The translations under genes were made by a program, and so were the position numbers. A stretch of DNA of 34,307 nt, taken from NCBI GenBank assembly GCA_900315225.1, contig OMYM01000002.1:1-34307 (forward strand), read 5' to 3'. The notes beneath the pieces were generated by a model. That model was not told where the DNA came from. It made no database searches and saw nothing but the letters and a program-made list of their open reading frames with translations. Source of the DNA: an uncultured Erysipelotrichaceae bacterium (GTDB taxonomy: Bacteria; Bacillota_I; Bacilli_A; Erysipelotrichales; Erysipelotrichaceae). Of this stretch, positions 1,511 through 31,918 are shown piece by piece (position 1 is the first letter of the stretch; every line of letters starts with the position of its first letter).

Positions 1511-2117
1511 AAAACTACAGGAATTACGCAAGAGCAGGTCTTTGACGCAGGAACAATTGGCCAAGGAGCTATATGTCTCAAGGACAGCCATATCCAAGTG
1601 GGAATCAGGCAGAGGGTACCCAAGCATCGATTCATTGAAAGAGATATCGAAGTTTTTTTCCATAAAGATCGATGACTTGATTTGTTCGGATGAGATCATT
1701 GTCGTGGCGGAAAGAGAAAAAGAAGACTTTGCGTCCAAATACATCTCGTTGATCAGTGGTGCCTTGGATGTGTTTGTCGGTATTCTGCTTGTCATTCCTG
1801 CCTTTGGCATGGGCAATGAGGTAACATCGACGGTGTCATTGTTTGCTATGGAAAGCATCAGCCCATGGATCAAGACTGTCTTTGTGTTTATTATCGCCAT
1901 GACGGTATTGAATGGGATCGCTGGCGTTTTAACAATCCTCTTGGACAAGCCTTCCTGCAACAAGCATTTGCTTGTTGCAGGAGTGATGTTGTCCATTGTG
2001 GGCGTTGTTGTTTTTCTTGCGACAAGACAACCATATGCTGGACTGGTGTATTTTGCGATCTTCGTCATGAAAGCGTTTGTGTTCATTGTTGTACGCTATC
2101 CATTCAACCAAAAATAA
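1497..2117 (+). CDS. XRE-family regulator with C-terminal membrane domain
   Basis: Of 206 aa, residues 5-65 form a standard Cro/C1 helix-turn-helix (LTQEQLAKELYVSRTAISKW, then ESGRGYPSIDSL). Residues from about 80 on are hydrophobic, with roughly four membrane segments (for example LDVFVGILLVIPAFGMG and KTVFVFIIAMTVLNGIAGVL). Membrane-tethered XRE proteins of this shape are common in Bacillota, and their ligands are mostly unknown. The start has a GGGAGG site inside the end of the PAP2-like gene; the overlap implies translational coupling. It probably regulates its own operon in response to a membrane-derived signal, but that is inference. Confidence 0.88.
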   Translation: MEFNEKLQELRKSRSLTQEQLAKELYVSRTAISKWESGRGYPSIDSLKEISKFFSIKIDDLICSDEIIVVAEREKEDFASKYISLISGALDVFVGILLVIPAFGMGNEVTSTVSLFAMESISPWIKTVFVFIIAMTVLNGIAGVLTILLDKPSCNKHLLVAGVMLSIVGVVVFLATRQPYAGLVYFAIFVMKAFVFIVVRYPFNQK

Positions 2118-2147
2118 CACCCGTGTTCAAAGAACACGGGTGTTATT
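2113..2147. terminator. Convergent (bidirectional) terminator
   Basis: A perfect 16-bp stem, AATAACACCCGTGTTC / GAACACGGGTGTTATT, with a 3-nt AAA loop. It lies between the plus-strand XRE gene (stop 2117, inside the stem) and the minus-strand FHA gene (stop 2155). The minus strand has the better T tract (TTATTTTT), so it most likely ends the kinase/cell-wall operon and also serves the PAP2/XRE pair. Confidence 0.85.
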
Positions 2148-2154
2148 GGTTGGG

Positions 2155-2901
2155 TTATTGATAGATTTTTGTCTTGGCATCCTTGCTTGCGTCTGGTTCC
2201 TTGGTATCGGACATCTTGCCCACTTTCAAGACGCTAAGCGGTTTATCATCATAATTGGAGGATGGTCTACGTACTGAGGGTCTCTGCTCGGTTTTTGGGT
2301 TCTTCTTCTTTTCCTTGTCTTTTTTCTTGCTTGTTTCTTCTTCGGGCTTTTGTTCAATATGCACGGGAGGAAGAACAGGCATGAGGTCGGTATGATGGAA
2401 GCGAAGCTGGTAGTTGCCAAGGAGAAGATCAAGATCTTCTTCCAACATGATTTCATCGATTCTCTGTCGGGTGGATAGGTTGATGGTTCCCGAGGATTCG
2501 GATCTGTTTTCGTAGATGAAGTTGCCATCGCCATCCATGGTAATGGCACCATGGTTCCATGACACTCTGCCATCGGGCAGGCAGAGGTCACTTTCGGGGT
2601 CTCTGCCGATGGTGTATTCTTCCTGGTTGGAGGTCATGTTTATATCGTAGTGATCTTCCCATTCTTCGCCAGTGACGGTATCGGCGATCTGGATGTACCA
2701 GTCGGTCATCAATTGGGTTGCCGGGTTGTTGGCGTTGCTTTCTTTCTTGGTGCTTTTGGTCTTTTTCTTCATGCCAAATAACTTGCGCATGCCAGAAGTC
2801 TGGATCTGCAGGCTGTCGCTGTTGGTAATGACGTAGAAGCCGATCAGTGCCAAAACAGCGATGATGACGATAATGGCGGTAAGACTGTTGTTACTCTCCA
2901 T
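2155..2901 (-). CDS. Membrane-anchored FHA-domain protein
   Basis: The protein has 248 aa. Residues 8-25 are a single N-terminal membrane segment, followed by a basic KKKTKSTKK linker. Residues about 75-165 form a forkhead-associated (FHA) domain with the phosphothreonine-binding signature: the GR of YTIGRDPESD, the Ser-x-x-His of RVSWNHG, and the Asn of YENRS. The C-terminal third is a Lys/Glu/Pro-rich low-complexity tail. FHA domains bind phosphothreonine made by Ser/Thr kinases, and one is encoded in this same operon. It is the last gene of that operon, and its start overlaps the penicillin-binding protein gene by 11 nt. Inferred role: a phosphorylation-dependent adaptor at the membrane for the cell-wall enzymes. 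Confidence 0.88.
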   Translation of the reverse strand: MESNNSLTAIIVIIAVLALIGFYVITNSDSLQIQTSGMRKLFGMKKKTKSTKKESNANNPATQLMTDWYIQIADTVTGEEWEDHYDINMTSNQEEYTIGRDPESDLCLPDGRVSWNHGAITMDGDGNFIYENRSESSGTINLSTRQRIDEIMLEEDLDLLLGNYQLRFHHTDLMPVLPPVHIEQKPEEETSKKKDKEKKKNPKTEQRPSVRRPSSNYDDKPLSVLKVGKMSDTKEPDASKDAKTKIYQ

Positions 2902-4336
2902 CGGAGTCTCCTTTCTGTTGGTTTTTCTGTTCGAGGATATAGTTTACATAGCTGACGAGTTTCTTGGCTGGTTCATATAGGTCGCTAGAGCGTCTCGAAG
3001 CGGAATCGTTGATCGAAATGCAGAAGCTATAACGATCCGTGAAGCCAAGGAGATAGGTGTGGATGCGGTTTTCGCCACATTCGGCGGTACCGGTTTTCGC
3101 ATAGACAACACCATGTGCCGTCTCAATGAAGCCATATGACTTTTCCGCTGTGTAACGAAGCCCTTCCTTCAACCTTTGCGCCACATTTTCACTGACGCAA
3201 TTTTCAGCGAGAATGCTGGGTGTGTTGACGTATGTAGCGTAGGATTCATCGTTGGAGGTGATGGACGAGACGATGTATGGTTGACGCATGACGCCATTGT
3301 TCGCAATGGCGGAAGCGATCATCGTCAAGTGCAGTGGCGTCAAGGACAAGGCACCTTGCCCATACGAAGTAAACGCTAGGTAAAGGGGGGAGCGGTTCTC
3401 ATACGCAAAGTTGGAAGATAATGTTCCAAGATACGGTATCGAGATCTTTTCCCCGATGAGAAAACGCGAAGCAGTTTCCTCCAAGGCACTCCAGGACACC
3501 TTTGTGCCTAGGTTGGCGAAATAAGTGTTGGAGCTATATGCAAGGGCATCGTTGAGATCCAGCTGGCCATAGGCGTAGTTGCCATAGTTCTTTACTTCGT
3601 AGTCGGAACCTTCCGCAAAGAATGAACCAGAGTCGTAGTAATGGAATGCACTTTCGTCTAATAGCCCTTTGTCCTTGAGGTCCAGTGCTGCGGCGGATGT
3701 GATAATCTTGAACGTTGATCCTGGAGGATCGGTTTCTCTTACGCCTGGCATGTATTGGCTGCCTGGAACTTGGTTGGATTCCTGGAAGAATTTATTGAGA
3801 TCCAATAGGTCGAAGACAACGGGTCCATGGCTTGCCAGGCACAGGATTTCCCCTGTCGTATTGTCCAATACGGTAACACTGCCATATTGGCCGGCGAGAA
3901 TCTCGTTATAGGCGATTTTCTGGATGTCGGTGTCGATTGTCAGGTGGATTGTAGAACCACGATGGTTTTCATCCAACGTGTAGTACAAGTCTCTTTGCGC
4001 TATTCCTTTGATGCCAAAGGGAGATGCGCCAATGTTGTTGAAGCCTAGGATCCAGGCATATGGTTGGGAGAGATCGCTGGCGATCTCTCCCGCTTTGCGG
4101 GGTTCTACGCCATGGGAGATGACATTGCCATCACGATCCTTGAAGTCTCCTTCAATCGCAATGGAGCGGATGGCATTGTCGGTGATGACCCCCACGTATT
4201 CTTCATCGGTGTGGTTTTTTTCGCTCTTGATGAAATATCTTGCGCCATACAAGAAACAAATCAATACCGCCAAGGCAAGGGTGGAGAGCTTGATTGCTTC
4301 GATTCTTTCCTTGACGTTCAACTTGGCTTTCTTCAT
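2891..4336 (-). CDS. Class B penicillin-binding protein (PbpA/FtsI-like transpeptidase)
   Basis: The protein has 481 aa, with one N-terminal membrane anchor (about residues 15-34) and an extracytoplasmic part. All three transpeptidase motifs are present: SxxK at 207-210 (STFK), SxN at 268-270 (SSN) and KTG at 414-416. It would cross-link peptidoglycan together with the SEDS protein encoded just upstream. It is shorter than typical PBP2 or FtsI and resembles the compact PbpA of actinobacterial kinase operons. I place the start at ATG 4336, which follows GGAAGGGAG and overlaps the SEDS stop in an ATGA arrangement; an upstream in-frame start at 4387 would lie inside the SEDS gene. Expected target of beta-lactams. 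Confidence 0.92.
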   Translation of the reverse strand: MKKAKLNVKERIEAIKLSTLALAVLICFLYGARYFIKSEKNHTDEEYVGVITDNAIRSIAIEGDFKDRDGNVISHGVEPRKAGEIASDLSQPYAWILGFNNIGASPFGIKGIAQRDLYYTLDENHRGSTIHLTIDTDIQKIAYNEILAGQYGSVTVLDNTTGEILCLASHGPVVFDLLDLNKFFQESNQVPGSQYMPGVRETDPPGSTFKIITSAAALDLKDKGLLDESAFHYYDSGSFFAEGSDYEVKNYGNYAYGQLDLNDALAYSSNTYFANLGTKVSWSALEETASRFLIGEKISIPYLGTLSSNFAYENRSPLYLAFTSYGQGALSLTPLHLTMIASAIANNGVMRQPYIVSSITSNDESYATYVNTPSILAENCVSENVAQRLKEGLRYTAEKSYGFIETAHGVVYAKTGTAECGENRIHTYLLGFTDRYSFCISINDSASRRSSDLYEPAKKLVSYVNYILEQKNQQKGDSDGE

Positions 4337-5619
4337 CTCTTTCTCCCTTCCGGCATTGCGCACATGGCGATGATCAGGATCATGCATACGAGTTCATAGG
4401 TGCCTCCCACCGAGACAAACGGCAGACATATGCCTGCCAGGGGAAACAAACCCGTTGACATGGCGATATTTAACAATGCCTGTAGCGTGATCAGGGTTGT
4501 GGCACAGAACATGAATACTTGGCGAAACCCGTTTTGTTCCACGGTTGCCGCATAGCCATTGACCCCAAGCAGGACATACAAAACCAATAGGCTAAATCCC
4601 GTCAAGGCGCCAAAATTCAGGATCACATAGGTGAACACCATGTCGGAATCTGCCACGGGGATGGAGATCGGCAGCCTTGTTCCAAGCAATCCACCAAGGA
4701 TCAAGGCTTGCCGTGCATGATCCATCTGGTATCCCTCGTTGTTGAGGTCGAGGGAATCCAGGTCATATGCCATCTGGTAGCGGGTGTAGATCTTGTCGAT
4801 ATAGTTGTATATGTGGCTGGAACCTGGAAAGTCAAAGCGCATTTCCTTTAACATGGGGTGGAATACCAGCAGGCATATGCCAGAAGCGATCAGGGCAAGG
4901 CATATGGTCATATAGGCTGCCTTTGCCTTGGAGGGCTTCATAAACACCCAATAGGCAAGTATGTGTAGGAAGAGTAGGACAAGCATGTTCCCAAGCTCCC
5001 TGATGGCCAAACAGCCCAATAGATTGCCTATGACAAAGCCAGTGGACAAAGCCATTTTCTTCTTTTCAGTGAGGGAATGGTCGGCGAATATGACCGCATA
5101 GAACAGGCAGGCGATGATCTTGATGAACTCGGTCAACTGGAAGGTTGCTCCACCAATGGAGATCCATGCGGTTGTCCCGGTGTTGTTCATGTCCGTGCCA
5201 ACGGTAAACAATAGGCCATAGATGACGATGTTGGCGATTGCCAAGGGGATTGGCAGCCATTTGGGTGCTTTTCCCTTGGGAAACATTTTTTGGAACATGT
5301 AGCAGGCACCTACGCCTATGATACATGTAGCAAGGCCATACATCTCGATCTTGATGTTGGGGAATACTTGTCGCAATAGACATTGCACAGCTGCCCCGAT
5401 CGCAAATATCATCGCAGCGACATATAACATGTTGGTATTGCCCTTTTGCTTGGCGATCCAGAAGGCAAGAACTGTTTCAAACACGACAATCCCTGCCATG
5501 ACCACGATATACTGGTCGGCTGCCAAAAGAGACTTTGTTCTAAGTAACAGATACAGTGTGAGTTGTATCGCGATTACCAGGATCAAGGGGCGTATTTTTC
5601 TTGCGTTTTCGTTTTTCAT
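4333..5619 (-). CDS. FtsW/RodA/SpoVE (SEDS) family peptidoglycan glycosyltransferase
   Basis: This 428-aa polytopic membrane protein has about ten hydrophobic segments and recognisable SEDS motifs. TTAWISIGGATFQLTEFIKI corresponds to the family's RWI-lG-xxQPSE-xxK region. TGLFPLAGICLPFVSVGGT matches the conserved TGllP-tGipLPfiSyGG motif near the C-terminus. SDMVFTYVILNFG lies where the extracytoplasmic loop motif is expected. SEDS proteins polymerise lipid II and pair with a class B PBP, here the next gene with a 4-nt overlap. Ribosome binding site AAGAGG precedes ATG 5619; the kinase gene ends 10 nt upstream. Whether it serves elongation, division or a special wall process cannot be decided from this window. 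Confidence 0.9.
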   Translation of the reverse strand: MKNENARKIRPLILVIAIQLTLYLLLRTKSLLAADQYIVVMAGIVVFETVLAFWIAKQKGNTNMLYVAAMIFAIGAAVQCLLRQVFPNIKIEMYGLATCIIGVGACYMFQKMFPKGKAPKWLPIPLAIANIVIYGLLFTVGTDMNNTGTTAWISIGGATFQLTEFIKIIACLFYAVIFADHSLTEKKKMALSTGFVIGNLLGCLAIRELGNMLVLLFLHILAYWVFMKPSKAKAAYMTICLALIASGICLLVFHPMLKEMRFDFPGSSHIYNYIDKIYTRYQMAYDLDSLDLNNEGYQMDHARQALILGGLLGTRLPISIPVADSDMVFTYVILNFGALTGFSLLVLYVLLGVNGYAATVEQNGFRQVFMFCATTLITLQALLNIAMSTGLFPLAGICLPFVSVGGTYELVCMILIIAMCAMPEGRKR

Positions 5620-5629
5620 TCGTTGCCTC

Positions 5630-8600
5630 TTATTGATGTCCGTAGTTGATCAGGTTGCTGGAAGCGTTGTTAACGACTTCGGTGTCCGCAAGATTCATGT
5701 AGGCACCTTTGCCGGCATAGATGCACGCATTGGGGGAACTACAGGTGAAGCTGCGGTTTTCCTTGCCATCCATGCGGGGATCTTGCACATAGATGTTTCC
5801 ATCCACAAGCAAGTCTTGCCCATGGTCGTTGGTCATCTTGAGGGAAGAGCCATCCTCGTACAACAAATGCAAGGATCCACCCGTCACCCTGATCAAGGGA
5901 ATGTCAAGTCCCGTCTCGTTAACAAATGTATTTTCCCCGATCAATTGCAGGGTGATGTTTCCCTTGAATTCCATGGGGAAGGTCACATGCATGTTTTCCA
6001 GGACTAGTCGTTTGTTCTCTGCGTCATAGCGAAAGCCATTGCCAAGGTCTCTGACAAAGACCTCGTTGCCATCGATGACGACCGTTGTATCGTCGTAGTT
6101 GGTGGAATCATCGCTCCAGGCAATGATGACCGAGCTATCGGCGCTGTTGTTTTGGAAGGTTGCAGTGCGCTTGGTGATGTTGGTGTTGATTCCAGCATAG
6201 ATGCATGCATTGCTGCTGAGGCAATTGAAAGTGCCATGCAGATTGGCGGAATTTGCCGCATATACGTAGTTGTCGGCGTAGATGTCTTCACCCTTGGCGT
6301 TATCCATCGTCAAGGAGGAACCCTCATCGGAATAGATGCGCAATGTACCTTTTTTCACTTTGATCAAAGGAGCCTCGGCTTCAGTGTTGCGCAAGACAAC
6401 GTTTCCCTTGATCCAGATTTTCACGTCGCCTTGGAATTCTATACACTTTTCGATGGTTGCCCCATCAAAGACAACTCTCTCTGTTTCCTCGTCGTAGTAT
6501 ACGCCTTCAACCTCAAGCATGGAGGCGATGTTTTCTGGGTTGTCCACATGGACGACGCCTCCGTTTTCCAGAAAGTAAGGGAACCATAGCCTGACGACAA
6601 GCGTTGCGATGGTGATAAAGACCACAAGGGAATTTAGCCCAAAGAACAAAGATGCCATGTCATTGCTGTCGGCGACAGGGTTTTTCATGTTCTTGGCATA
6701 TGTGATGGTGCTGTCCTCGAGAACATATAGGATCAAAAGGACGATAGAGCTGATTGTTCCAAGTCGCAATTCACCAAACAATGGCGCATTGAACATCGGG
6801 TATTTGGCGGAAAAGCCAAGGTATTGCTCGATGAGCACTAAGACAAACAACAGCGAAGGCAAGCCTAGCGCGATCAGCGCCAAGTGTCGCCAATAGTTGT
6901 CGAGTTGTTTCTGCAGGGTGATATTGCTGGACGCAAAGCTCACCAGGATGGCAATGCCATATGCCAAGAAAAACGTGGGCAACATTTCGAACATCTGGTT
7001 AAAATACAGATAGGCAAAGATGAATATGAAGATAAACGTCTTTGCGATATCCCAGCCATGGTTGACTAGCGTGGCATTGGGATGTTCCTCCAAGAGGGAC
7101 TTACCCTTGCAGATGGCATCGAGCTTTTGGGCGATAGCGGTTTTCTCTATCTTGAGATTGTTGTTCTCGGAGGAAAGCGCTGAAGCATTTTCGTTGGCTT
7201 TCCTTAGGCTTGCCCGCAAGTCATCGATGGTTTGGCTCTGTTCTTCGACATTGCTTGCGTCATGTTGCAATTGTTCGATTTTCTTGAGGTTATTGTCTTT
7301 CTCGGTCTGTAGCTCGGTGATTTTCTCCTGCATTTGCGACATCTTTGGCTGGATGCTTAGCAATTGCTTCTCTTTGACCTCTAGTTCCTTGATGCGCTTG
7401 TCCTTGGCTTCAAGCTGTTCTTTGAGGGCTTTGTTGTCCTCGATCAGTTTCTCGTTGCGGGTGTCCACATGGACAGCCGCACCTTCGTAGCGCGTTGCTT
7501 TTTCTTCCGCGTCCTGCAGCTTTGCGTTGAGGGTGCGGATTTCCTCGTCTTTCTTGGTGATTTGCTGGCTGAGGGCGTTGATTTGCTCGATGGCGGAAGA
7601 ATCTTCCTGCCGATTTCCGGAAGCGCCAGCCCGTAATTCTTCTTCGAGATCCTCGATCTTCTTTTGTAGCTTTTCAACTTCTTCCTGGTGGCGCATTTCG
7701 ACATTGCCCAACCGCTTTGCGAAGTTGTCTTTGGCTTGTTCGATGTAGATCTGTTCTTTCTCAAAGTTCAGCGATTGGATGTCCTTCAACATCTCGGTCA
7801 CGGACTGGTAGCGATTCTCAGGATCAGGTGCCGTTGCTTTCTGCAGGATGTCGCGGAATCCTGGTGGCGTATTGTCCCAATACGCTTGTTCGTTAGCTTG
7901 CTCGGACTCGAATTGCTTGGCAAGGTTATGCTCGGTTTCGCCAAGCGTGAAGCCATTGCATATGTAGAAAGCAGTACGGGCAAAGGAGAACAAGTCGGAA
8001 CGGATGTCCTTGGCTTCTTCTGGCGCACTGAAGCCAGGGGACATGAACTTGGTGTTCGAAGAATACCCCGAGCCAATGGAACCCATGCCAAAGTCCGAGA
8101 GATAGTAGAATATACGCCTGTTCTTGATCTTGAAAAGAATATTGGAAGGCTTGACATCCCTGACGAAGATATTGGTTTCTCCGTTGTGTTCGGAAAGAAA
8201 CCGTACATCATCCAAGATATCCTTTAACATCTCATATGCGATGCGCCAGTTTTCCACGGTATCAGGCAATGAATCAGGGCGATTTAGCAATGATCCATCC
8301 ATCTTTGCCATGACAATGAAGCCAACGTGATCCCTTACGGAATTGTCGATGAAGCTGTATTCCGGATAGAATCTGACACAGTTCTGCATCTGTCTGTCAT
8401 GGATGATCTGGTTGATCTTGAACTCGGTATCGATGTGGTCGCAAATCGAGATATACGAGCTATCGTTTCTTAATTGCGCCAGCGTCATGCCGGTGTTTTT
8501 ACCTTTGTGTTGGTCTTTGTAGGCGGTGGAAGGGTCGATTACCTTGAGCGCAAGCTGTTCGTCTTCGTCATCTTGTTCAATCACGAAGACATTCGCAAAG

Positions 8601-8896
8601 CCTCCTTCGCCGATCTTCTCCTTGACCGTTAGCTCGGGATGATGCGCACGCATGATCTTGTTGAGATCTTTGCGCGAAAGATTATCAATTGTCCCAAGCT
8701 TCTTTTCCTTGTCCTTGAAATCAGGACCAGAAGTATTTGTCTTGCTGTTGCGCGAATGCGGCTTGTTACTGGACGAGGATTGGTTCTTGGCGATAGGTTT
8801 TCTTGCTGTGCCTTGTGGCTTGTTGGCGGGATGCGCCTTGTCCATGAGGCTGTTTAGCTCTTCGGGAGGCATGATTTTTGTACTCTCATTGGCCAT
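5630..8896 (-). CDS. Membrane Ser/Thr protein kinase with coiled coil and duplicated ectodomain
   Basis: The protein has 1088 aa. A basic, Ser-rich N-tail (1-85) precedes a Hanks-type kinase domain (about 90-375) with the glycine loop GEGGFANV (96-103), Lys118, the catalytic loop RDVKPSN (246-252; the usual HRD histidine is Val), DFG (268-270) and APE (291-293). The catalytic set is therefore intact. Residues about 380-605 are a long, highly charged coiled coil. About five membrane segments follow (617-775), which puts the C-terminus outside. The last 300 residues hold two related units of about 120 aa (about 797-915 and 952-1070), both with a YDxExxRxV strand, an IPLI/APLIxV segment, a SDEGSSLTM/EDGSSLKM motif and a (S)xNACIYAG motif. 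There are no PASTA repeats. The stop of the phosphatase gene lies 2 nt upstream. Probably senses an envelope signal and phosphorylates wall-synthesis partners; the ligand is unknown. Confidence 0.93.
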   Translation of the reverse strand: MANESTKIMPPEELNSLMDKAHPANKPQGTARKPIAKNQSSSSNKPHSRNSKTNTSGPDFKDKEKKLGTIDNLSRKDLNKIMRAHHPELTVKEKIGEGGFANVFVIEQDDEDEQLALKVIDPSTAYKDQHKGKNTGMTLAQLRNDSSYISICDHIDTEFKINQIIHDRQMQNCVRFYPEYSFIDNSVRDHVGFIVMAKMDGSLLNRPDSLPDTVENWRIAYEMLKDILDDVRFLSEHNGETNIFVRDVKPSNILFKIKNRRIFYYLSDFGMGSIGSGYSSNTKFMSPGFSAPEEAKDIRSDLFSFARTAFYICNGFTLGETEHNLAKQFESEQANEQAYWDNTPPGFRDILQKATAPDPENRYQSVTEMLKDIQSLNFEKEQIYIEQAKDNFAKRLGNVEMRHQEEVEKLQKKIEDLEEELRAGASGNRQEDSSAIEQINALSQQITKKDEEIRTLNAKLQDAEEKATRYEGAAVHVDTRNEKLIEDNKALKEQLEAKDKRIKELEVKEKQLLSIQPKMSQMQEKITELQTEKDNNLKKIEQLQHDASNVEEQSQTIDDLRASLRKANENASALSSENNNLKIEKTAIAQKLDAICKGKSLLEEHPNATLVNHGWDIAKTFIFIFIFAYLYFNQMFEMLPTFFLAYGIAILVSFASSNITLQKQLDNYWRHLALIALGLPSLLFVLVLIEQYLGFSAKYPMFNAPLFGELRLGTISSIVLLILYVLEDSTITYAKNMKNPVADSNDMASLFFGLNSLVVFITIATLVVRLWFPYFLENGGVVHVDNPENIASMLEVEGVYYDEETERVVFDGATIEKCIEFQGDVKIWIKGNVVLRNTEAEAPLIKVKKGTLRIYSDEGSSLTMDNAKGEDIYADNYVYAANSANLHGTFNCLSSNACIYAGINTNITKRTATFQNNSADSSVIIAWSDDSTNYDDTTVVIDGNEVFVRDLGNGFRYDAENKRLVLENMHVTFPMEFKGNITLQLIGENTFVNETGLDIPLIRVTGGSLHLLYEDGSSLKMTNDHGQDLLVDGNIYVQDPRMDGKENRSFTCSSPNACIYAGKGAYMNLADTEVVNNASSNLINYGHQ

Positions 8897-8898
8897 AG

Positions 8899-9708
8899 CT
8901 AGATATCCTCCGTGTCGGTTGCGTACATGATGATGATCGAGCTGTTGTCAATGTAGCTTTTGTCGGGTGTTTTCCGATGCATGAACTCGATCAACATCTG
9001 TGCCGGGTTTTCTCCTGTGTTGAAGTCCTTGTATGCTAATAGTCTGTTTTTCAAGAGCGTAATGTCTTCCGTCCAATCGCTCATGACAATGAATATGTCA
9101 TTGTCTTTGCAGGAATCAAGATAGACATGTGGCTCGATCTTTTTCGCTTGCCCAAAGCATTGGATAAGCGTATGTCCATCCGATGGCTTGATCGCTTCTG
9201 GGTCAATGCCTTGGTCAAGCTTCCGTTGCGCCAATGTGTCGATATGCGCCAAGGGTGTCAGTTCCCTGTCGCGTAGAAGAAAGATGGGTGAATCCCCGAC
9301 ATTGCACGCAATGAAATGATTGTCGTTGACGTATAGGGCGGACATTGTCGCAGCATATGCCCTTTCGCGGCCTTCAACATGTCGGGCGTAATTGCGCACT
9401 GTTTCATCGGCGGCTAGGACGCTGCGGCGTATATAGTCTTCGTTCCCCAATAGGAACGAAGGGAAATGTTCGATCATTGCCTGGACGACGATCTTGGATG
9501 CGCTTGCCGAATTGGCGAATTGGCTCACGCCATCCGACACCACGGCAAGGCATCCATCCTGAATGTCGTGGATGACACTTTCACAGGCACTCTTATCTCC
9601 ATCCAGCATTTGCGTTTCTTCAATCGAATAGTATCCGATGTGGTCTTGGTTTTCTTCCTTGGTGCCAATGTCTGTCGCGGCATAGATTTTTATAACTTTG
9701 TCATTCAT
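8899..9708 (-). CDS. PP2C-family Ser/Thr protein phosphatase
   Basis: The protein has 269 aa and the PP2C fold landmarks in order: TDIGTKEENQDHIG (metal-binding Asp), AVVSDGVSQ (DG motif), CNVGDSPIFLL (GDS), IVMSDW (the SDG site, with Trp for Gly) and a final DNSSIIIMY (DN). The four metal-binding aspartates are kept, so it is probably active. Some surrounding residues differ from the consensus (DGVSQ for DGxGG, GDSP for GDSR). It should reverse the kinase encoded 2 nt downstream and is the first gene of the five-gene operon. I chose ATG 9708 because GGAAAGGAAA lies just upstream; an upstream in-frame start at 9753 would precede that site and the promoter. Confidence 0.9.
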   Translation of the reverse strand: MNDKVIKIYAATDIGTKEENQDHIGYYSIEETQMLDGDKSACESVIHDIQDGCLAVVSDGVSQFANSASASKIVVQAMIEHFPSFLLGNEDYIRRSVLAADETVRNYARHVEGRERAYAATMSALYVNDNHFIACNVGDSPIFLLRDRELTPLAHIDTLAQRKLDQGIDPEAIKPSDGHTLIQCFGQAKKIEPHVYLDSCKDNDIFIVMSDWTEDITLLKNRLLAYKDFNTGENPAQMLIEFMHRKTPDKSYIDNSSIIIMYATDTEDI

Positions 9709-9736: not shown

Positions 9737-9745
9737 ATTCTATCA
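9737..9745 (-). promoter_or_regulatory. Probable extended -10 promoter of the kinase/cell-wall operon
   Basis: The minus strand carries TGATAGAAT, a TGn plus TAGAAT extended -10, about 28 nt before the phosphatase start. No good -35 hexamer is seen. It is the only promoter-like site found for the five genes. Confidence 0.45.
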
Positions 9746-9827
9746 TACGGCAAAATAGAAATTTTGGCAGATCATTTTTTTCCTCTTCGCATTTCATTGG
9801 CGAAAGGGAAAACGAGTGGGAGATACC

Positions 9828-9927: not shown

Positions 9928-10806
9928 ATGGAAACACTTGCGAGCAACCGCAATCTTTTTGTGGAACTTGATGAAGAAAGCGAAAGAATCCAGAAGCTGG
10001 AGGAAGAACTTGCGCAGTTGAAGCGTTTGCATAAGGAACATCTTGACCGTGTCAATGAAATGGCAAGCTTTAACATGGATGAGGGATACGAGGATCGCCT
10101 CTTCAAGTATATCTTTGGCAATCCAGCCAACAAGGAATGGGCATTGTCCCTGCACAATGCGCTTACGGGCGCGCATGGCACGGATACTAGAATGATCAAG
10201 GTTGATGCTATTGGGGAAACGGTGTACATCAGGATGAAGGATGAAACATGCTTGTTGGTATCGTTTGACATGCATCTATTGGGACTCAAAGGCATGCCTG
10301 ACGATGATATGCCAAGGCGCTATATCGTCTATGGGGGAAAAATGTACGCCAAGTACGATGATGGGCCACAAGAAAGAGCAGGGTATAGCAAGAAAATCCA
10401 CCTGCCAACCCCTATGTGCGTATGTCTTTGCAATGGGGAAGATGAAGAGGAAAAACAGGAGCTGACGCTGGATGCCGGTGGTTTTGGCGTAAAAGTGAGA
10501 ATGTTTAATGTCAATGCGCCCGGCAACAAGGAAATTGTGGAGACATGCAAGCCACTTGGGGAATATATCTGGCTTTTGACAGAGATCAGACGCTATCAGG
10601 CAGACGGAAAGCAGATTGGCGAAGCCGCTAGCCTGGCGCTTGAGGCAATGCCTGATGATTTTGTCGTCAAGGGATATTTGCACGCCAACAGGCAAGCCGT
10701 CCAGGATATGCTCGTGGCGGAATATGAAAAGAAGATTGAATTGGAATGGATCATGGAAGAATACGCCAAGGCATGCGCGCTTAAGGATAAAAACAACCAA
10801 GAATAG
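9928..10806 (+). CDS. Rpn / PD-(D/E)XK nuclease-like protein (transposase-related family)
   Basis: The 292-aa protein has an N-terminal coiled coil (about 15-50), then the pattern I associate with the Rpn/PDDEXK_2 family of gut Bacillota: EDRLFKYIFGNPANKEWALS, a Leu-rich helix, a VYIRMKDETCLLVSFDMHLL strand pair, MPRRYIVYGGKMYAKY, LPTPMCVCLCNG, and a C-terminal CKPLGEYIWLLTEIRRYQ helical region. Rpn proteins are predicted nucleases linked to recombination. The catalytic Asp/Glu spacing is hard to confirm here, and the usual NEM-like strand reads SFDM, so activity is uncertain. Start ATG 9928 follows AGGAGG (9913-9918). There is no transposon around it. Family assignment is from memory of the motif pattern. 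Confidence 0.7.
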   Translation: METLASNRNLFVELDEESERIQKLEEELAQLKRLHKEHLDRVNEMASFNMDEGYEDRLFKYIFGNPANKEWALSLHNALTGAHGTDTRMIKVDAIGETVYIRMKDETCLLVSFDMHLLGLKGMPDDDMPRRYIVYGGKMYAKYDDGPQERAGYSKKIHLPTPMCVCLCNGEDEEEKQELTLDAGGFGVKVRMFNVNAPGNKEIVETCKPLGEYIWLLTEIRRYQADGKQIGEAASLALEAMPDDFVVKGYLHANRQAVQDMLVAEYEKKIELEWIMEEYAKACALKDKNNQE

Positions 10807-10843: not shown

Positions 10844-10904
10844 ACATTTGGTTATCTGGATGCCATGTGGCATTTTAGCATGAAGATTGATCATGGAGGT
10901 GAAT

Positions 10905-11252
10905 ATGTTAACGATAGATAATCTTAGGCAGTTTGGCGTCAATGTTGAAGAAGGCTTGGGCAGGTGCATGAACAACGAGATGTTCTACCTGAGAATGGTG
11001 AATATGTCATTGGCGGACAAGAATTTCGATATCCTGGCAAAAGGTGTGGAAGATGGAGATCGAAAGACTTCGTTTGAGGCAGCGCATGCCTTGAAAGGTG
11101 TTCTCGGCAACTTGTCGTTAACGCCTCTCTACGAGATTGTCCAGGTCTTGACGGATCAATTGCGCAGCGAAACGGCGGATGTTTCCGGTGCCAAGGAAAT
11201 GGTGGTGCGTTTGACAAAACTGAAAAATGATTTGAATGATTTGGCGAAATAG
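10905..11252 (+). CDS. Hpt-domain phosphotransfer protein
   Basis: A 115-aa stand-alone histidine phosphotransfer domain, all helical. The phosphoacceptor motif AAHALKGVLGNLSL puts His61 in the HxLKG context of the family. Hpt proteins pass phosphate between receiver domains. The next gene, 50 nt downstream, begins with a receiver domain, so a direct phosphorelay pair is the simple reading. The hybrid histidine kinase that feeds it is not in this window. The ATG at 10905 is chosen over an in-frame TTG at 10887 because GGAGGT (10895-10900) sits at the right distance from the ATG. Confidence 0.88.
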   Translation: MLTIDNLRQFGVNVEEGLGRCMNNEMFYLRMVNMSLADKNFDILAKGVEDGDRKTSFEAAHALKGVLGNLSLTPLYEIVQVLTDQLRSETADVSGAKEMVVRLTKLKNDLNDLAK

Positions 11253-11302: not shown

Positions 11303-14212
11303 ATGAACGAAGAGTTGGAAAGAAAGCGAATTGGCGGGAAAAGGACGATACTGATTGTTGACGATGAGATGGTCAACCGTTTTATGCTTGGCAATATCTT
11401 CGAGGGGCTTTACGAGATATTGTACGCCGAGGATGGCGGTCAGGCAATGGACATTATTCGTGAACAAGGCAGCTCGATATCATTGGTTCTTTTGGATTTG
11501 GTCATGCCTGTTATGACAGGCATGGAGGTTCTTCATGCAATGAGGGCAGATAAGACGCTGCAGGGGATTCCTGTGATTGTGTTTACATCCGACCAAAAGG
11601 CGGAAGTGGAATGCCTGAAGCTTGGAGCAATGGACTTTGTCTCCAAGCCCTATCCGATTGCTGATGTGATTCTCGCCCGTGCCGCACGAACAATTGAGTT
11701 GTCCGAAGACAGGACGCTCATTGATGAAACGGAAAGAGATCAATTGACCGGACTGTACAACCGGGAGTTTTTCTACCGGTATGCCGATCAGATCGATAAA
11801 ACGAACCAAGGCACCCAGATGGATGCGGTTGTCGTTGACATCCATCGCTTTCATATCATTAACGAACGGTATGGCAAGGGATATGCGGATGATGTCTTGC
11901 GGGAATTGGCGGGAAAGCTGGAAAAAGAGGCACAAAAGCTCAATGGCATTGTAGGAAGATTGGCGGCGGATACGTTCCTTGCGTATTGGCCGCACGTTGA
12001 AAGCTACCAGGAAGTCTTCGACGCATTGTCTTTCGACAATGCGGGAAGCGAAGAGACGCATGTTCATTTGCGCATGGGCGTATATGAAAAAGCCGACATG
12101 GACCTTGACATTGAGCGAAGGTTTGATCGCGCCAGAAGCGCCTCTAACACGGTCAGGGGCATGTTAACGACGGCCATTGGCGTATATAACCAAGAGATGC
12201 ATGAAAAGGAGATCTACGCCGAACAGTTGGTCGAGGAATTCCCCGGGGCGATACGCGAGGGGCAGTTTATTATTAACTTCCAACCGAAGTTTGATATCCA
12301 GCAAAGGGTTCCCGTACTTGCTGGAGCAGAGGCATTGGTACGCTGGATCCACCCCAAGCAAGGAATGATCAACCCAGGCGTGTTCATTCCCCTGTTTGAG
12401 GAAAACGGCTTGATCCTGGAGATGGACAGGTATGTCTGGCGCGCTACGGCGGCGCAGATCCACGATTGGAAGAAACGCCTGGGATTCTCGGTACGTGTAT
12501 CGGTCAATGTCTCAAGGATCGACATGTACGACCCACAGCTCATTAACACATTCAAATCCCTTTTGGAAGAATATGAGCTGGATGCTGGAGACCTTGTGCT
12601 AGAGATCACTGAATCGGCGTATACCAACGATTCGGGGCAGATCATCGAAACGGTAAATGAACTTCGCAGCCTAGGTTTCATGGTGGAGATGGACGACTTT
12701 GGCACAGGGTATTCCTCCCTGAACATGATCCACCGCTTGCCAATCGATGCCTTGAAGCTGGACATGCAGTTTGTGCGCGATGCCTTCCGCGATGGAAGGG
12801 ATACCCGTCTGATCGAAGTGATCATTGAGATCGCCGACTATTTGCATGTGCCAGTCATTGCGGAGGGAGTGGAAACCCACGAACAAATGCTTGCTCTCAA
12901 GGCAATGGGATGCAAGCTGGTCCAAGGCTACTATTTCTCACGTCCTGTTCCAGCAGCAAGCTTTGAAAAGTTCCTTGTTGAAAGGATCGAACACGACAAC
13001 AAAGAGGCAATCAGGATCCTCATGCAATCGAGCCAAGGCAAGGAGGCAGGCACCAAGAACAAAGGCGAAGTGAACATTACAACCATCAAGAAACAGTTCC
13101 TGCCCATGTTGAAGTGGCTAAGCGACCAGATCCCTGGAGGTTTCTTTGTCTATCGGGCGGATGAATCACAGGAAATCATTCTGGCAAACAAGACAATGTT
13201 GCATTTGTTTGGCTGCCAGACGATGGAAGAATTCAAGCGCTTGACAGGAAACACATTCAACGGGATTGTCCACCCGGACGACCTCGAGGCGACCCAAAGC
13301 TCCATCCTGCGCCAGATCGCAGCTTCTGGCGCAGAGAACATGGATCATGTGGAATACCGCATCATCGCCAAGGATGGCAGCGTCCATTGGCTGGATGACT
13401 ATGGACACCTGGTAAACCTGGAAGAGCTAGGAGGTGTATACTTCGTATTTGTTTCCGATATCACCGAGAAACACAAAGACCGTGAAACCACTAGGCGGTC
13501 CAACAACATGTACACCACCCTCAGCAACCAGATTGACGATGAAAGGAACGAATTTCTGTCCATAGCCAGGGTGAACCTGACAGCCACTGTCGTCAGTGCC
13601 ATCACGGGAACCGAACTGTATGAATCCGACTATGTTGGATCATCATTCGAATCATTCATGGAAAGCAGGGTATACAGCTTTATCTTCGATGACGAGAGGA
13701 AACGCTTTGCCCAGATATTCAATCTCGAAAATCTCTTGCGGAATTACGAGAAAGGGGAAAATCCACCTAGAATGGTTGGCTATTGCCATAGGCAATCGGG
13801 AAGGCAATGTTTTGTCCTATTCCGGGGAAACCTTGCGTCCAACCCTGCCGATGGCTCCATCACCCTGTTCTTAGAGGAAAGGGTGTACGACAAAGAACAC
13901 GTAGGCATGGTTCTAGAAACGAGCGTATTGCCGATCAGATACAGCATGGTTGCATATGTGTGGCGTGACCATCTCCATGCGATCTATGGCTATGACAAAG
14001 ACGTATCGTATTCTTCATACATCGGTCAATCATTGTCGTTGTTGCCGGAAGAACAGAAGCAAGCAACTGCTGAGGCATTGTCCATGAGGACAATCGCCGC
14101 CAAGCTAGCCTCTAGCAATGAATATATCGTGGAAACGATAGACAAACGCCTTGCTTTCTACAAAGACAACCTAGAGAGAGAATTGTTCCTGCTGTTGGTG
14201 GCAGAGAAATGA
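11303..14212 (+). CDS. Response regulator: receiver, degenerate GGDEF, EAL, PAS
   Basis: The protein has 969 aa. Receiver domain (about 14-130): acidic pair in IVDDE, phosphoacceptor Asp65 (LLLDLVMP), Lys115 (SKPY). GGDEF-type domain (about 143-290): the active-site loop reads RLAADTF (219-225), so it cannot make c-di-GMP. EAL domain (about 305-555): intact E343-A-L, SVNVSR, LEITES, MDDFGTGYSS, LKLD, AEGVET and VQGYYFSRP, so an active c-di-GMP phosphodiesterase is expected. PAS domain (about 610-725) and a PAS-like C-terminal region (to 969). The likely role is phosphorelay-controlled c-di-GMP breakdown, with the upstream Hpt protein as partner. The ribosome binding site is poor: GGGGG touches the ATG at 11303. 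A hairpin follows the stop. Confidence 0.93.
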   Translation: MNEELERKRIGGKRTILIVDDEMVNRFMLGNIFEGLYEILYAEDGGQAMDIIREQGSSISLVLLDLVMPVMTGMEVLHAMRADKTLQGIPVIVFTSDQKAEVECLKLGAMDFVSKPYPIADVILARAARTIELSEDRTLIDETERDQLTGLYNREFFYRYADQIDKTNQGTQMDAVVVDIHRFHIINERYGKGYADDVLRELAGKLEKEAQKLNGIVGRLAADTFLAYWPHVESYQEVFDALSFDNAGSEETHVHLRMGVYEKADMDLDIERRFDRARSASNTVRGMLTTAIGVYNQEMHEKEIYAEQLVEEFPGAIREGQFIINFQPKFDIQQRVPVLAGAEALVRWIHPKQGMINPGVFIPLFEENGLILEMDRYVWRATAAQIHDWKKRLGFSVRVSVNVSRIDMYDPQLINTFKSLLEEYELDAGDLVLEITESAYTNDSGQIIETVNELRSLGFMVEMDDFGTGYSSLNMIHRLPIDALKLDMQFVRDAFRDGRDTRLIEVIIEIADYLHVPVIAEGVETHEQMLALKAMGCKLVQGYYFSRPVPAASFEKFLVERIEHDNKEAIRILMQSSQGKEAGTKNKGEVNITTIKKQFLPMLKWLSDQIPGGFFVYRADESQEIILANKTMLHLFGCQTMEEFKRLTGNTFNGIVHPDDLEATQSSILRQIAASGAENMDHVEYRIIAKDGSVHWLDDYGHLVNLEELGGVYFVFVSDITEKHKDRETTRRSNNMYTTLSNQIDDERNEFLSIARVNLTATVVSAITGTELYESDYVGSSFESFMESRVYSFIFDDERKRFAQIFNLENLLRNYEKGENPPRMVGYCHRQSGRQCFVLFRGNLASNPADGSITLFLEERVYDKEHVGMVLETSVLPIRYSMVAYVWRDHLHAIYGYDKDVSYSSYIGQSLSLLPEEQKQATAEALSMRTIAAKLASSNEYIVETIDKRLAFYKDNLERELFLLLVAEK

Positions 14213-27598: not shown

Positions 27599-30500
27599 AT
27601 GAATCCTTCGGAAGAATATTGCTTTGATATTGAAATACAGGAAATACTGACTTGCTTAAGCATTCCGTTTGTGATATATCGACACATTGGCCAACAAGTC
27701 GATACACTTGTTGTTTCACAAGGTTTTTGCGATGAATATGGCTTTCGAGAATTGACGGATGCTTATCATTCCTTGCATCCAGACGATAGGGACAGGGTGA
27801 AGGAAGCAATGGAACGCTTGGCGAAGCATGATGTTCGTTGTGATATTGTCTGTCGTGCCAAGACATCCAAAGACGATGGCTACGTCCTTTTGCATGTCTT
27901 TGGCAAGAGTATATATCCTAAGATAGGGGTGCGCTTGTGTCTTGTCTGGCTGGTTCGTGAGGGAAACAATGCAGCCTTGGCGTATGAGAGAGTCTTGGAT
28001 GGTACCATGGAACGTCTATCGATGAATGCCAAGGTACGTGGCTCGTATTGCGATTACTTGACGGGACTGCCCAACATGGCGTATTTTTGTGGCTTGGCGG
28101 AAGAAGGACGCAAAAGACTACAGGAACAAAACATTGCTTCAGCGATTCTTTTCGTTGGCATGATGGGATTGAAGGATTTTAACCGCAGGCATGGCAATGG
28201 CGAGGGGAATCGCTTGATATGCGCTGTCGCAGATATTTTAACAAGATGGTTTGGACGTGAGAATTGCGCTCGGTTTGCGAGTGGGAATTTTGCGGCGCTT
28301 TCCAGAGAAGAAGGGTTAGAAGAATGTCTTGAGGAAATGATGGCTGCATGCAACAGCATTAACAACGGGAAAAACTTGCCGATTCGCATCGGGATATATC
28401 CCGATCAAATCGAGGAAGTGGAGGTTGACGTTGCCTGGGAAAGAGCCAGGCTTGCTGTGGAAAACAAGCAAAGCCGCAAGGAATCATTCTATTGTTTTTA
28501 TGATTTGGCGATGCTCAAGGAAGAGAAAGAACGCCAGGATATCATGGAACATCTGGATGAGGCCATAGAAAAAGGATGGATCAAGGTGCATTATCAGCCA
28601 ATTGTCCGTTGTGCCAATGGAAAGGTGTGCAATATCGAAGCATTGGCGCTTTGGGATGATCCAAAAAGAGGCATGTTGTTACCGGTGTCGTTTGTTCCTG
28701 CTCTGGAAGAAGCCATGTTAATACACAAGCTGGATCTATGCATCGCAAAGCAAGTGCTTTGCGACATAAAGTCCATGGAGAAGGAAGGAAACATGCATGT
28801 TTCGGTAACCATCAATCTTTCTCGCATCGATTTTGATTCTCTTGACATTGTCCAGGCGATGTGTGACTTGGTGGATGAAGCAAAGGTTGAGCGCAAGATG
28901 ATCGTCATAGAGATCACGGAGAGTGGCCTGGGAAACGATTTCGACTATATGAAGGAACAGATCGAACGTTTCCGCAGGCTAGGGTTCCAGGTATGGATGG
29001 ATGACTTTGGCGGTGGATATTCATCGCTGGAAATGCTTCAAAACGTAAAGCTTGACGCGATCAAGTTTGACATGGGTTTCATGATGCGCATGGATGCAGG
29101 CAACGAAGCAAGGATCATCCTGGCACAGATGATGAAGCTAGCTACTTCACTAGGGGTGGATACGGTTTGTGAAGGAGTTGAGACAAAAGAACAAGCGCGC
29201 TTTCTGCGGGAAATCGGTTGTTCAAAGCTTCAGGGATTCTATTACATGAAACCGTCCTTGCTTGACCAAATCATTGAAAGATACGCCAGGGAATTACCCG
29301 ATGGGATAGAAGATCCCCGCCAATCCGCCTATTACGACACGATGGGAAGGGTCAATCTTTTCGATTTGTCATTCCTTGCGAACAGGGATGACAGTGTGAT
29401 AAAGAATACCTTTGACACAGTTCCAATGGGCGTGATGGAAATCAATGAAGAAGGCGACAGGGCAAGATATTCCCGCTATAATCAATTCTTTAGGGAGTTC
29501 GTGAAAAGAGCCTTTGGCTTTGATCTCTTTGATCCAAACATAGAGTATCCCGTGCCGCGGGAAGGCGTGGGACATGGCTTTATAAAAGCCATTGAACAGT
29601 GTCGTAGCAATGGAACAGATCGGGCGTTTATCGATGAGGAAATGCCTGATGGCACGATGGTTCATTCCTTTGTGCGCAAGATTAACATCAATCCAGTGAC
29701 AGGAAGCTTGGCGGTTGCGGTCGCTGTTCTTTCAATCACCGATCCAGATGAAAAGACAACCTATGCGGACATTGCCCGATCGCTTGCGGCTGATTACTAC
29801 AATATCTATGTGATAGACTTGGATACGGATGAATATATCGAATACTCTTCCATGGTTGGCAAAGAGGAATTGGCCATTGAACGTCATGGCGTAGAGTTCT
29901 TTGCGTCCGCAAGGCGAGACGCCTTGGAACGCATCTATGAAGAGGACAGGGAATCGTTCTTGAAGAGGTTTTCCAGGGACAACGTTCTCCAGGAATTGGC
30001 TGCTCAGGGAGGATTCACAATGACATACAGGCTGATCGATACAGGAATGCCGAAGTATGTCAATATGAAAGCCACCAGGATGCATCGGGGAAATCGCATT
30101 ATCCTTGGCATCAGTGATGTCGATGCCCAGATGAAGCAACAGGAAGAAGAAAAAAGACTACGACAGGAGAGAGTCTCGCTTGGAAGAATCGCTGCCCTGT
30201 CCTCTAGTTTCATTGTGCTTTATACGATTGATCCTTCAACGGGAAATTATACGCAATACAACCCTTCGAATGAATTCGCCAGCTTTGGCCTGGCAAGGCA
30301 AGGAGATGATTTCTTTCGTGATGTCAGGCTGGATGCGCCAAAAGCCATTGATTCAAGGGACATGGAGAGACATTTACGCGTTTTGACGAAAGAAAACATG
30401 ATGCGAGAGATCCAAGCAAACCATTTCTTCATGCACAACTATCGGCTTTTGTTAAACGGACAGTCTGTTCCTGTGAGTTTGAAGGCTACACTGATCGAGG

Positions 30501-31918
30501 AAGATGATGGCGAAAAGCTTCTCCTTGGTGTTCTCAAAGATGAAAAAGAGGAATATAGGCAAGGCTTTGCGGCAGCCTATGACAAGGCACGAAACAACCT
30601 TATCATCTTCACCCACATAGCCCAGGCGCTTGCCAGAGGATGCATAGACCTCTTCTATGTGAACCTGGAAAGCAGTGAGTATATCGAATACCACACAAAC
30701 GATGAGCGTGGGGTGTTGACCCAGGCACGCCAGGGCAATGATTTCTTTGCTAGCTGCAAAAGAGATGTAAAGCTATATGTGCATCCAGACGACCAGAATA
30801 TGTTTATCGCTGCCATGGACAGGGAATGCATCGCCAAGGCACTAAGCCAAGACAAGACATTCGAGATGATCTATCGGAGAATCAAAAACGATCATTCCTT
30901 CTATGTGAGAATGAGTGTTTCGCGGATCGAGGAAGACAAACGATATATTGTCATCGCTGTATCGGATATCGATGAACTGATGAGAAAACGCTTTGCGGAA
31001 GAGAGAATACAAGAGGAACGCATTATCTATGCCCGTCTGCATGCTATCACAGGTAATTTTATATGCGTGTATGTGATTGATCCAAAGACGGGAAGCTACC
31101 GTGAATTTAGCGCCATAGACAACTACAAGACATATTTTTCCCAGGAAAAGGAAGGAGAGGACTTCTTTGCCCAACTTCGGAAAGCCGCAAGATTATTCAT
31201 TCATCCAGATGATGTCAATCGTGTCCTTTCGCTTGTTACCGAGATGAATGTCATGGCAGAGATAGAACGCAGTGGCATCTTTACCCTTGGCTATCGCATC
31301 ATGATGGATGGAAAGCCAATCCATTGCCAGCTAAAGGCAGCCATGGTGGAAGAAAAAGATGGACCATGCTTGATTGTTGGTCTCAATGACATAGACGCAC
31401 AAGTCAGACAAGAAGAGGAATACAGAAGATGCCTTGCCCAGGCACAAGCGCAGGCAAACATAGATGCCTTGACAGGCGTTAGGAACAGGCATTCTTTCCT
31501 CGAGGCAGAGACTGCCATAGACAGACAGATTGCGGAAGGTCGCCCATCGCCATTTGCAATCGCGATACTCGATATCAACGACTTGAAAAAAGTCAATGAT
31601 ACCGTTGGTCACCAGGCGGGAGACCAATACCTCAAAGATGCAGCAAATATTATCTGTAGCATATTCGACCAAAGCTTCGTCTTCCGAATCGGAGGGGATG
31701 AATTCGCAGTGATTGCCCAAAGAGAGGAATATATGTCCATCAAAGACAAGGCCATGGAACTTGAAAGGCATAACCTAGAAGCGTTGCGGACAGGAGGCAT
31801 TGTCATTGCCTGCGGTATCTCGATATTCAAAGACGATACATGCGTTGCCCAGGTATTTGAACGTGCCGACCATTTTATGTACGAGAACAAAAACGCCTTG
31901 AAGTCCATGCGATTTTGA
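27599..31918 (+). CDS. Multidomain c-di-GMP enzyme: degenerate GGDEF, EAL, four sensor repeats, GGDEF
   Basis: The protein has 1439 aa and no membrane segment. Order: a PAS-like N-terminal part (to about 130); a GGDEF-type domain (about 150-305) whose loop reads ASGNF (227-231), so inactive; an EAL domain (about 315-560) with E347-A-L, TINLSR, IEITES, MDDFGGGYSS, CEGVET and LQGFYY, expected active; a PAS-like part (590-730); four tandem repeats of about 140 aa starting near 732, 868, 1015 and 1154, each with a (L)YxID/NLxTxxYxEY opening and, in all but one case, a xGxDFF motif; a final GGDEF domain (1295-1439) with intact GGDEF at 1365-1369 and no RxxD inhibition site. It could both make and destroy c-di-GMP, switched by sensing. 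Ribosome binding site GGAGG precedes ATG 27599. Confidence 0.93.
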   Translation: MNPSEEYCFDIEIQEILTCLSIPFVIYRHIGQQVDTLVVSQGFCDEYGFRELTDAYHSLHPDDRDRVKEAMERLAKHDVRCDIVCRAKTSKDDGYVLLHVFGKSIYPKIGVRLCLVWLVREGNNAALAYERVLDGTMERLSMNAKVRGSYCDYLTGLPNMAYFCGLAEEGRKRLQEQNIASAILFVGMMGLKDFNRRHGNGEGNRLICAVADILTRWFGRENCARFASGNFAALSREEGLEECLEEMMAACNSINNGKNLPIRIGIYPDQIEEVEVDVAWERARLAVENKQSRKESFYCFYDLAMLKEEKERQDIMEHLDEAIEKGWIKVHYQPIVRCANGKVCNIEALALWDDPKRGMLLPVSFVPALEEAMLIHKLDLCIAKQVLCDIKSMEKEGNMHVSVTINLSRIDFDSLDIVQAMCDLVDEAKVERKMIVIEITESGLGNDFDYMKEQIERFRRLGFQVWMDDFGGGYSSLEMLQNVKLDAIKFDMGFMMRMDAGNEARIILAQMMKLATSLGVDTVCEGVETKEQARFLREIGCSKLQGFYYMKPSLLDQIIERYARELPDGIEDPRQSAYYDTMGRVNLFDLSFLANRDDSVIKNTFDTVPMGVMEINEEGDRARYSRYNQFFREFVKRAFGFDLFDPNIEYPVPREGVGHGFIKAIEQCRSNGTDRAFIDEEMPDGTMVHSFVRKININPVTGSLAVAVAVLSITDPDEKTTYADIARSLAADYYNIYVIDLDTDEYIEYSSMVGKEELAIERHGVEFFASARRDALERIYEEDRESFLKRFSRDNVLQELAAQGGFTMTYRLIDTGMPKYVNMKATRMHRGNRIILGISDVDAQMKQQEEEKRLRQERVSLGRIAALSSSFIVLYTIDPSTGNYTQYNPSNEFASFGLARQGDDFFRDVRLDAPKAIDSRDMERHLRVLTKENMMREIQANHFFMHNYRLLLNGQSVPVSLKATLIEEDDGEKLLLGVLKDEKEEYRQGFAAAYDKARNNLIIFTHIAQALARGCIDLFYVNLESSEYIEYHTNDERGVLTQARQGNDFFASCKRDVKLYVHPDDQNMFIAAMDRECIAKALSQDKTFEMIYRRIKNDHSFYVRMSVSRIEEDKRYIVIAVSDIDELMRKRFAEERIQEERIIYARLHAITGNFICVYVIDPKTGSYREFSAIDNYKTYFSQEKEGEDFFAQLRKAARLFIHPDDVNRVLSLVTEMNVMAEIERSGIFTLGYRIMMDGKPIHCQLKAAMVEEKDGPCLIVGLNDIDAQVRQEEEYRRCLAQAQAQANIDALTGVRNRHSFLEAETAIDRQIAEGRPSPFAIAILDINDLKKVNDTVGHQAGDQYLKDAANIICSIFDQSFVFRIGGDEFAVIAQREEYMSIKDKAMELERHNLEALRTGGIVIACGISIFKDDTCVAQVFERADHFMYENKNALKSMRF

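What the first reader, a model, noticed from the sequence alone, without database searches (positions are those of the whole stretch)
2155..9708. Actinobacteria-like kinase/phosphatase/SEDS/PBP/FHA operon in a Bacillota-type genome
PP2C, Ser/Thr kinase, RodA/FtsW, class B PBP and FHA genes are packed with gaps of 2 and 10 nt and overlaps of 4 and 11 nt. The same set forms the pstP-rodA-pbpA-pknA/B-fha cluster of mycobacteria. In most Bacillota the PP2C-PASTA kinase pair sits with other genes and not with SEDS/PBP/FHA genes. Here a complete write/erase/read set is linked with the wall polymerase and cross-linker.
Basis: partly seen in the sequence, partly recalled or inferred. Interest (0 to 1): 0.72.

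Follow-up and report, generated by a model that had tools for sequence, protein, structure and literature searches.

The report
Kinase-linked cell-wall synthase operon
A gut/rumen Erysipelotrichaceae bacterium carries an extra cell-wall-building enzyme pair packed in one operon with a protein kinase, its phosphatase and a phospho-binding protein; the layout resembles the mycobacterial one, but the wall enzymes are the group's own, most of the layout is common in Clostridia, and only the unusual kinase is new.

Summary
The five-gene operon is real, at the stated coordinates, with the stated gaps and overlaps and a strong terminator just after FHA. It is not an actinobacterial import. SEDS and PBP trees place both with the Erysipelotrichaceae pair (95-100 support); grouping them with Actinobacteria is rejected (p-AU 4e-7 and 4e-6). 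It is not alien to Bacillota either: 173 of 391 Clostridia species have this PBP type, and 32 of 40 neighbourhoods read carry FHA>SEDS>PBP. Full kinase/PP2C/SEDS/PBP/FHA sets are rarer but occur in an Oscillospiraceae MAG, and a paper reports the mycobacterial cluster in a subset of Firmicutes (PMC6554272). What is unusual: this genome has the ordinary prpC-prkC(PASTA) locus and the genus-type lone SEDS-PBP pair elsewhere, so the window set is an additional system. Its kinase lacks PASTA and has a coiled coil, about five TM helices and a ~300-residue beta-rich C-terminus predicted outside; relatives were found only as two paralogues in the same genome. Best reading: a lineage-specific, kinase-controlled second peptidoglycan synthase. 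A new variant of a known kind, of moderate-low interest.

The parts
8899..9708 (-). PP2C Ser/Thr phosphatase, soluble, about 269 aa; first gene of the operon
   Evidence: Pfam PP2C_2 1.3e-12; best PDB match M. tuberculosis PstP 6e-8; Asp motifs present, but SDG>SDW in one motif
5630..8896 (-). Membrane Ser/Thr kinase, 1088 aa: kinase domain 90-370, coiled coil ~376-600, about 5 TM segments 618-768, two beta-rich repeats ~790-1088 predicted outside; no PASTA
   Evidence: Pkinase 4e-16; TM and motifs; PASTA only on contig C103; paralogues C166 48% and C477 38% in the same genome
4333..5619 (-). SEDS glycosyltransferase (RodA/FtsW/SpoVE family), 428 aa, conserved Asp326 in DSDMVF
   Evidence: PF01098 4.6e-26; aligned to solved FtsW HTDFVF; trees
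2891..4336 (-). Class B PBP of PbpA type, 481 aa, STFK / SSN / KTGT motifs; 4-nt overlap with the SEDS gene
   Evidence: PF00905 1.4e-36; solved PbpA relatives; trees
2155..2901 (-). FHA protein: one N-terminal TM helix, cytoplasmic FHA domain, Lys-rich tail; GR, S and H present, the usual NGT is SGT
   Evidence: PF00498 1.8e-7; below-cut-off match to FhaB_Rv0019c over TM+FHA; alignment with clostridial TM-FHA proteins
2113..2147 (-). Intrinsic terminator, 16-pair stem, closing the operon
9742..9770 (-). Weak promoter-like site upstream of the PP2C gene (no better than chance)
   Evidence: 10 sites found in the region against 9.5 expected in shuffles

Best explanation
The operon encodes a second, lineage-specific SEDS-bPBP peptidoglycan synthase with its own phosphorylation control, working like the mycobacterial PknA/B-PstP-FhaB-RodA-PbpA unit. 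Proposed steps: the membrane kinase senses an envelope cue through its beta-rich C-terminal region (inferred); it phosphorylates cytosolic parts of the wall machinery and itself (inferred); the soluble PP2C reverses this (inferred); the membrane-anchored FHA protein binds phosphothreonine sites and gathers or gates the SEDS-PBP pair (inferred); SEDS polymerises glycan and the PBP cross-links it (inferred from intact motifs and family). Shown here: gene content and order, intact catalytic motifs, family assignments, the place of SEDS/PBP inside the Erysipelotrichaceae/uncultured-Clostridia branch of the PbpA-type family, and that the set is additional to the genome's normal prpC-prkC pair and genus-type SEDS-PBP pair.
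For: Tight five-gene operon with a terminator. Intact motifs. Trees and AU tests for SEDS/PBP. The same gene set in another order in Actinobacteria, in an Oscillospiraceae MAG (L110) and partly in Syntrophomonadaceae (L121: FHA, FHA-SEDS fusion, PBP, PASTA kinase), so the linkage recurs in different orders. The FHA-SEDS-PBP triad is common in Clostridia. Ordinary prpC-prkC (L032) and genus-type SEDS-PBP (L020) elsewhere in the genome. Window composition matches that of housekeeping contigs (tetranucleotide r about 0.92), against misbinning. In mycobacteria the linked genes act in wall growth (PMC6554272, PMC11898655).
Against: No functional data. The FHA domain lacks the usual Asn of NGT, so phosphothreonine binding may be weak. 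One PP2C motif is altered (SDG>SDW). Long branches of SEDS and PBP could mean relaxed constraint. No second species with this kinase was found, so there is no comparative proof that the five genes work together. The sensor role of the C-terminus rests on hydrophobicity and a low-confidence all-beta model (mean pLDDT 47).
Confidence: 0.62

Rival explanations
1. Horizontal transfer of an actinobacterial pstP-rodA-pbpA-pknB-fha locus into a Bacillota genome.
For: Same gene set; M. tuberculosis PbpA is among the PBP's top PDB matches, and PstP is the PP2C's top match.
Against: SEDS and PBP trees: window+Actinobacteria rejected, p-AU 4.4e-6 and 4.2e-7; window with Erysipelotrichaceae 95-100%. Kinase lacks PASTA and its only close relatives are own-genome paralogues. 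Gene order differs from Actinobacteria.
Confidence: 0.03
2. A linkage of FHA/SEDS/PBP with a kinase and phosphatase ancestral to the Erysipelotrichaceae + L110-type branch, lost in most of the genus and kept in this strain, with the kinase later replaced.
For: L110, in the sister group of the Erysipelotrichaceae SEDS/PBP clade, has FHA-SEDS-PBP-PP2C...PP2C-STK; FHA-SEDS-PBP is widespread in Clostridia.
Against: Window and L110 kinase, PP2C and FHA are only weakly similar (FHA no BLAST match, PP2C E 0.001, kinase E 5e-8) and the gene orders differ; no window-type SEDS found in 69 other genus genomes.
Confidence: 0.25
3. Independent assembly: one of this genome's several PP2C-STK cassettes and an FHA gene became linked to a duplicated or acquired SEDS-PBP pair.
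For: PP2C-STK cassettes sit beside other output genes in this genome (C384 with prepilin peptidase and FHA; C189 with AAA ATPase and FHA; C299). Kinase paralogues with swapped C-termini (C166 DUF6273, C477 TM only). FHA lies downstream here, upstream in Clostridia.
Against: Full gene sets in other lineages suggest the combination is not a chance join.
Confidence: 0.45
4. Binning artefact: the contig belongs to another organism.
For: MAG of 5.2 Mb in 591 contigs with 9.16% contamination; kinase absent from 271 other family genomes.
Against: Tetranucleotide profile agrees with housekeeping contigs (r about 0.92, against 0.60-0.73 for four other genus members); SEDS/PBP sit with the family.
Confidence: 0.1

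Closest known systems
Actinobacterial fhaA-fhaB-pstP-rodA-pbpA-pknA-pknB locus
   Same: PP2C, SEDS, PbpA-type PBP, Ser/Thr kinase and an FHA protein linked on one strand
   Different: One kinase instead of two and without PASTA; order PP2C-STK-SEDS-PBP-FHA; soluble PP2C (no TM segment found; mycobacterial PstP is transmembrane); SEDS and PBP from another clade
Clostridial FHA-SEDS-PBP triad (32 of 40 neighbourhoods read)
   Same: TM-anchored FHA protein next to a SEDS/PbpA-type PBP pair
   Different: FHA lies upstream there; kinase and PP2C usually not nearby
Oscillospiraceae MAG RGIG3420 locus (L110): FHA-SEDS-PBP-PP2C-x-x-PP2C-STK-STK
   Same: Full gene set in Bacillota, SEDS/PBP in the sister group
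   Different: Kinase 508 aa, too short for the window kinase's layout; gene order differs; non-SEDS/PBP proteins only weakly similar
Bacillota prpC-prkC (PASTA kinase) locus
   Same: Adjacent PP2C and membrane Ser/Thr kinase
   Different: That pair exists separately in this genome (L032); the window kinase has no PASTA

Membership tests
SEDS glycosyltransferase | PF01098 over cut-off, multi-TM, conserved catalytic Asp | tested here: met
   92 bits against 26.4; Asp326 aligned to the FtsW TDFVF Asp
PbpA-type class B PBP | Transpeptidase domain with SxxK, SxN, KTG; groups with PbpA-type PBPs | tested here: met
PASTA (PknB/PrkC) kinase | Extracellular PASTA repeats | tested here: not met
   All PASTA matches are on contig C103, none in the window; NCBIfam PknB_PASTA_kin 45.6 bits against cut-off 450
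Hanks-type Ser/Thr kinase | Pkinase over cut-off; Gly loop, RD, DFG, APE motifs | tested here: met
   59.6 bits against 31.7; motifs
PP2C phosphatase | PP2C_2 over cut-off; metal-binding Asp motifs | tested here: met
   48 bits against 24; one motif SDG>SDW
FhaB-type FHA protein | N-terminal TM plus FHA domain with GR, S, H, N residues | tested here: inconclusive
   TM, GR, S, H present; Asn of NGT replaced by Ser; NCBIfam FhaB_Rv0019c 24.4 bits against cut-off 125
Actinobacterial pstP-rodA-pbpA-pknAB-fha locus | Descent from the actinobacterial locus | tested here: not met
   AU tests for SEDS and PBP
Kinase-regulated wall synthase | Kinase-dependent phosphorylation of wall proteins | not testable with these tools
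   needs phosphoproteomics

The most novel reading that the evidence does not exclude
A peptidoglycan synthase dedicated to a specific condition, controlled by a new kind of sensor kinase (coiled coil, about five TM helices, extracellular beta-repeat domain instead of PASTA), used alongside the housekeeping SEDS-PBP pair and PrkC in the same cell.
Probability: 0.35. Interest if true: 0.5.

Novelty: new variant of a known kind. Interest (0 to 1): 0.33.

Why it matters
It shows that linkage of a wall-synthase pair with phospho-signalling genes is not an actinobacterial speciality: the FHA-SEDS-PBP core is widespread in Clostridia, and kinase/phosphatase genes join it in different orders in several lineages. 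The window adds a case in which a non-PASTA kinase takes that place in a cell that still has PrkC, which makes 'what does the kinase sense, and does it act on the linked synthase?' testable.

Tried and rejected
Actinobacterial transfer: rejected by AU tests. PASTA kinase: rejected. Misbinning: unlikely by composition. A wider family of this kinase: none in 271 other family genomes and only 28-29% kinase-domain matches in 2 of 371 Clostridia; these searches scored only the best two candidates per genome, so weak relatives may be missed. PDB search and AlphaFold of the kinase C-terminus: no sequence match, all-beta but mean pLDDT 47, so no fold search was run. Literature searches for FHA/SEDS/PP2C clusters in Clostridia found no dedicated paper. 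Kinase, PP2C and FHA trees were not built, because their matches outside the genome are too weak.

Full report
WHAT IS THERE. Pfam finds each domain above its cut-off. A 16-pair terminator follows the FHA gene at 2147-2113; a promoter-like site at 9770-9742 is no better than chance. Motifs needed for catalysis are present in the kinase, SEDS and PBP, and largely in the PP2C (SDG>SDW in one motif); the FHA domain keeps GR, S and H but has SGT for NGT.

THE KINASE IS UNUSUAL. It has 1088 residues: kinase domain 90-370, a coiled coil of about 225 residues, about five hydrophobic segments between 618 and 768, and two repeats of about 150 residues at the C-terminus that an odd number of TM helices would put outside. 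AlphaFold gives all-beta structure there at low confidence and no solved relative is found by sequence. It has no PASTA: the genome's PASTA matches lie on contig C103, in the PASTA kinase next to a PP2C gene (prpC-prkC type; Pfam) and in a PASTA-bearing PBP in a dcw-like gene order (gene order read by eye). Close relatives of the window kinase are two paralogues in the same genome with other C-termini: C166 with DUF6273 and C477 with TM helices only. None was found in 271 other genomes of the family, and only distant kinase-domain matches in 2 of 371 Clostridia.

GENOME CONTEXT. Composition ties the window to the genome's housekeeping contigs. The genome also holds a genus-type SEDS-PBP pair on C368 (29% and 37% identical to the window's). 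30 of 70 genus genomes searched, own included, have a SEDS of this kind. In 27 named-scan loci of this type, 25 show SEDS beside the PBP and none shows a kinase, PP2C or FHA gene nearby; only 12 of them have 4 kb or more on both sides. The window set is therefore an additional system.

IS IT ACTINOBACTERIAL? A named scan with the PBP found the Erysipelotrichaceae pairs, a few Clostridia, and many Actinobacteria with FHA-FHA-PP2C-SEDS-PBP-STK-STK. Trees place the window PBP inside the Erysipelotrichaceae clade (100/99) and the window SEDS as sister to it (99/91); an uncultured Clostridia group (L110, L112, L114) is next, and Actinobacteria lie with the bulk of Clostridia. In reduced sets the AU test rejects window+Actinobacteria for PBP (p 4.2e-7) and SEDS (p 4.4e-6); joining the window to the L110 group is rejected weakly for PBP (p 0.026) and not for SEDS (p 0.088). 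Both window branches are long. Kinase, PP2C and FHA were not treed.

IS THE LINKAGE NEW IN BACILLOTA? No. In a sample of 391 Clostridia species, 173 have a PBP matching the PbpA-type profile at E 1e-70 or better. Of 40 neighbourhoods spread down that ranking, 32 have FHA>SEDS>PBP, 6 have SEDS>PBP and 2 show the PBP alone; one has PP2C-STK some kilobases away. These counts use my own ORF finder and HMMs. Fuller sets exist in L110 (FHA, SEDS, PBP, two PP2C, a kinase by Pfam and a second by my HMM) and in a Syntrophomonadaceae MAG, L121, where FHA, an FHA-SEDS fusion, PBP and a PASTA kinase sit in the usual def-fmt-rsmB...rsgA-rpe locus (flanking genes named by eye). A 2019 paper states that the pknB-fhaA cluster is conserved in a subset of Firmicutes (PMC6554272).

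MECHANISM. By analogy with mycobacteria, where the linked kinases, PstP and FHA proteins govern growth and division (PMC6554272, PMC11898655), the likeliest role is phospho-control of a second SEDS-PBP synthase, with the FHA protein as the membrane-bound reader. The genes, motifs and phylogeny are shown; the signal, the substrates and the interaction are inferred.

VERDICT. It is a new variant of a known kind: the linkage is known, while the non-PASTA kinase, the gene order and its being an extra copy are distinctive.

Noticed in passing
L079 (C384), L076 (C189), L080 (C299): The same genome carries several PP2C-STK cassettes next to different outputs: a prepilin peptidase with a DUF6382-FHA protein, an AAA ATPase with an FHA protein, and a 721-aa protein of unknown function.
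   Followed up: partly
L121 7966-9663: In a Syntrophomonadaceae MAG an FHA domain is fused to the N-terminus of the SEDS protein (565 aa), upstream of PBP and a PASTA kinase.
   Followed up: partly
window 11303-14212 and 27599-31918: Two large GGDEF/EAL/PAS proteins, the first with a receiver domain and an Hpt gene just upstream at 10887-11252, near the operon.
   Followed up: no
window 9928-10806: Divergent 292-aa gene with no Pfam match; a good promoter-like site (TTGACA-17-TATCAT) precedes it.
   Followed up: no
L072 2997-5432 (C166): Paralogous kinase (48% identical in the matched part) with a DUF6273 domain in place of the TM/beta region: modular swapping of C-termini.
   Followed up: partly
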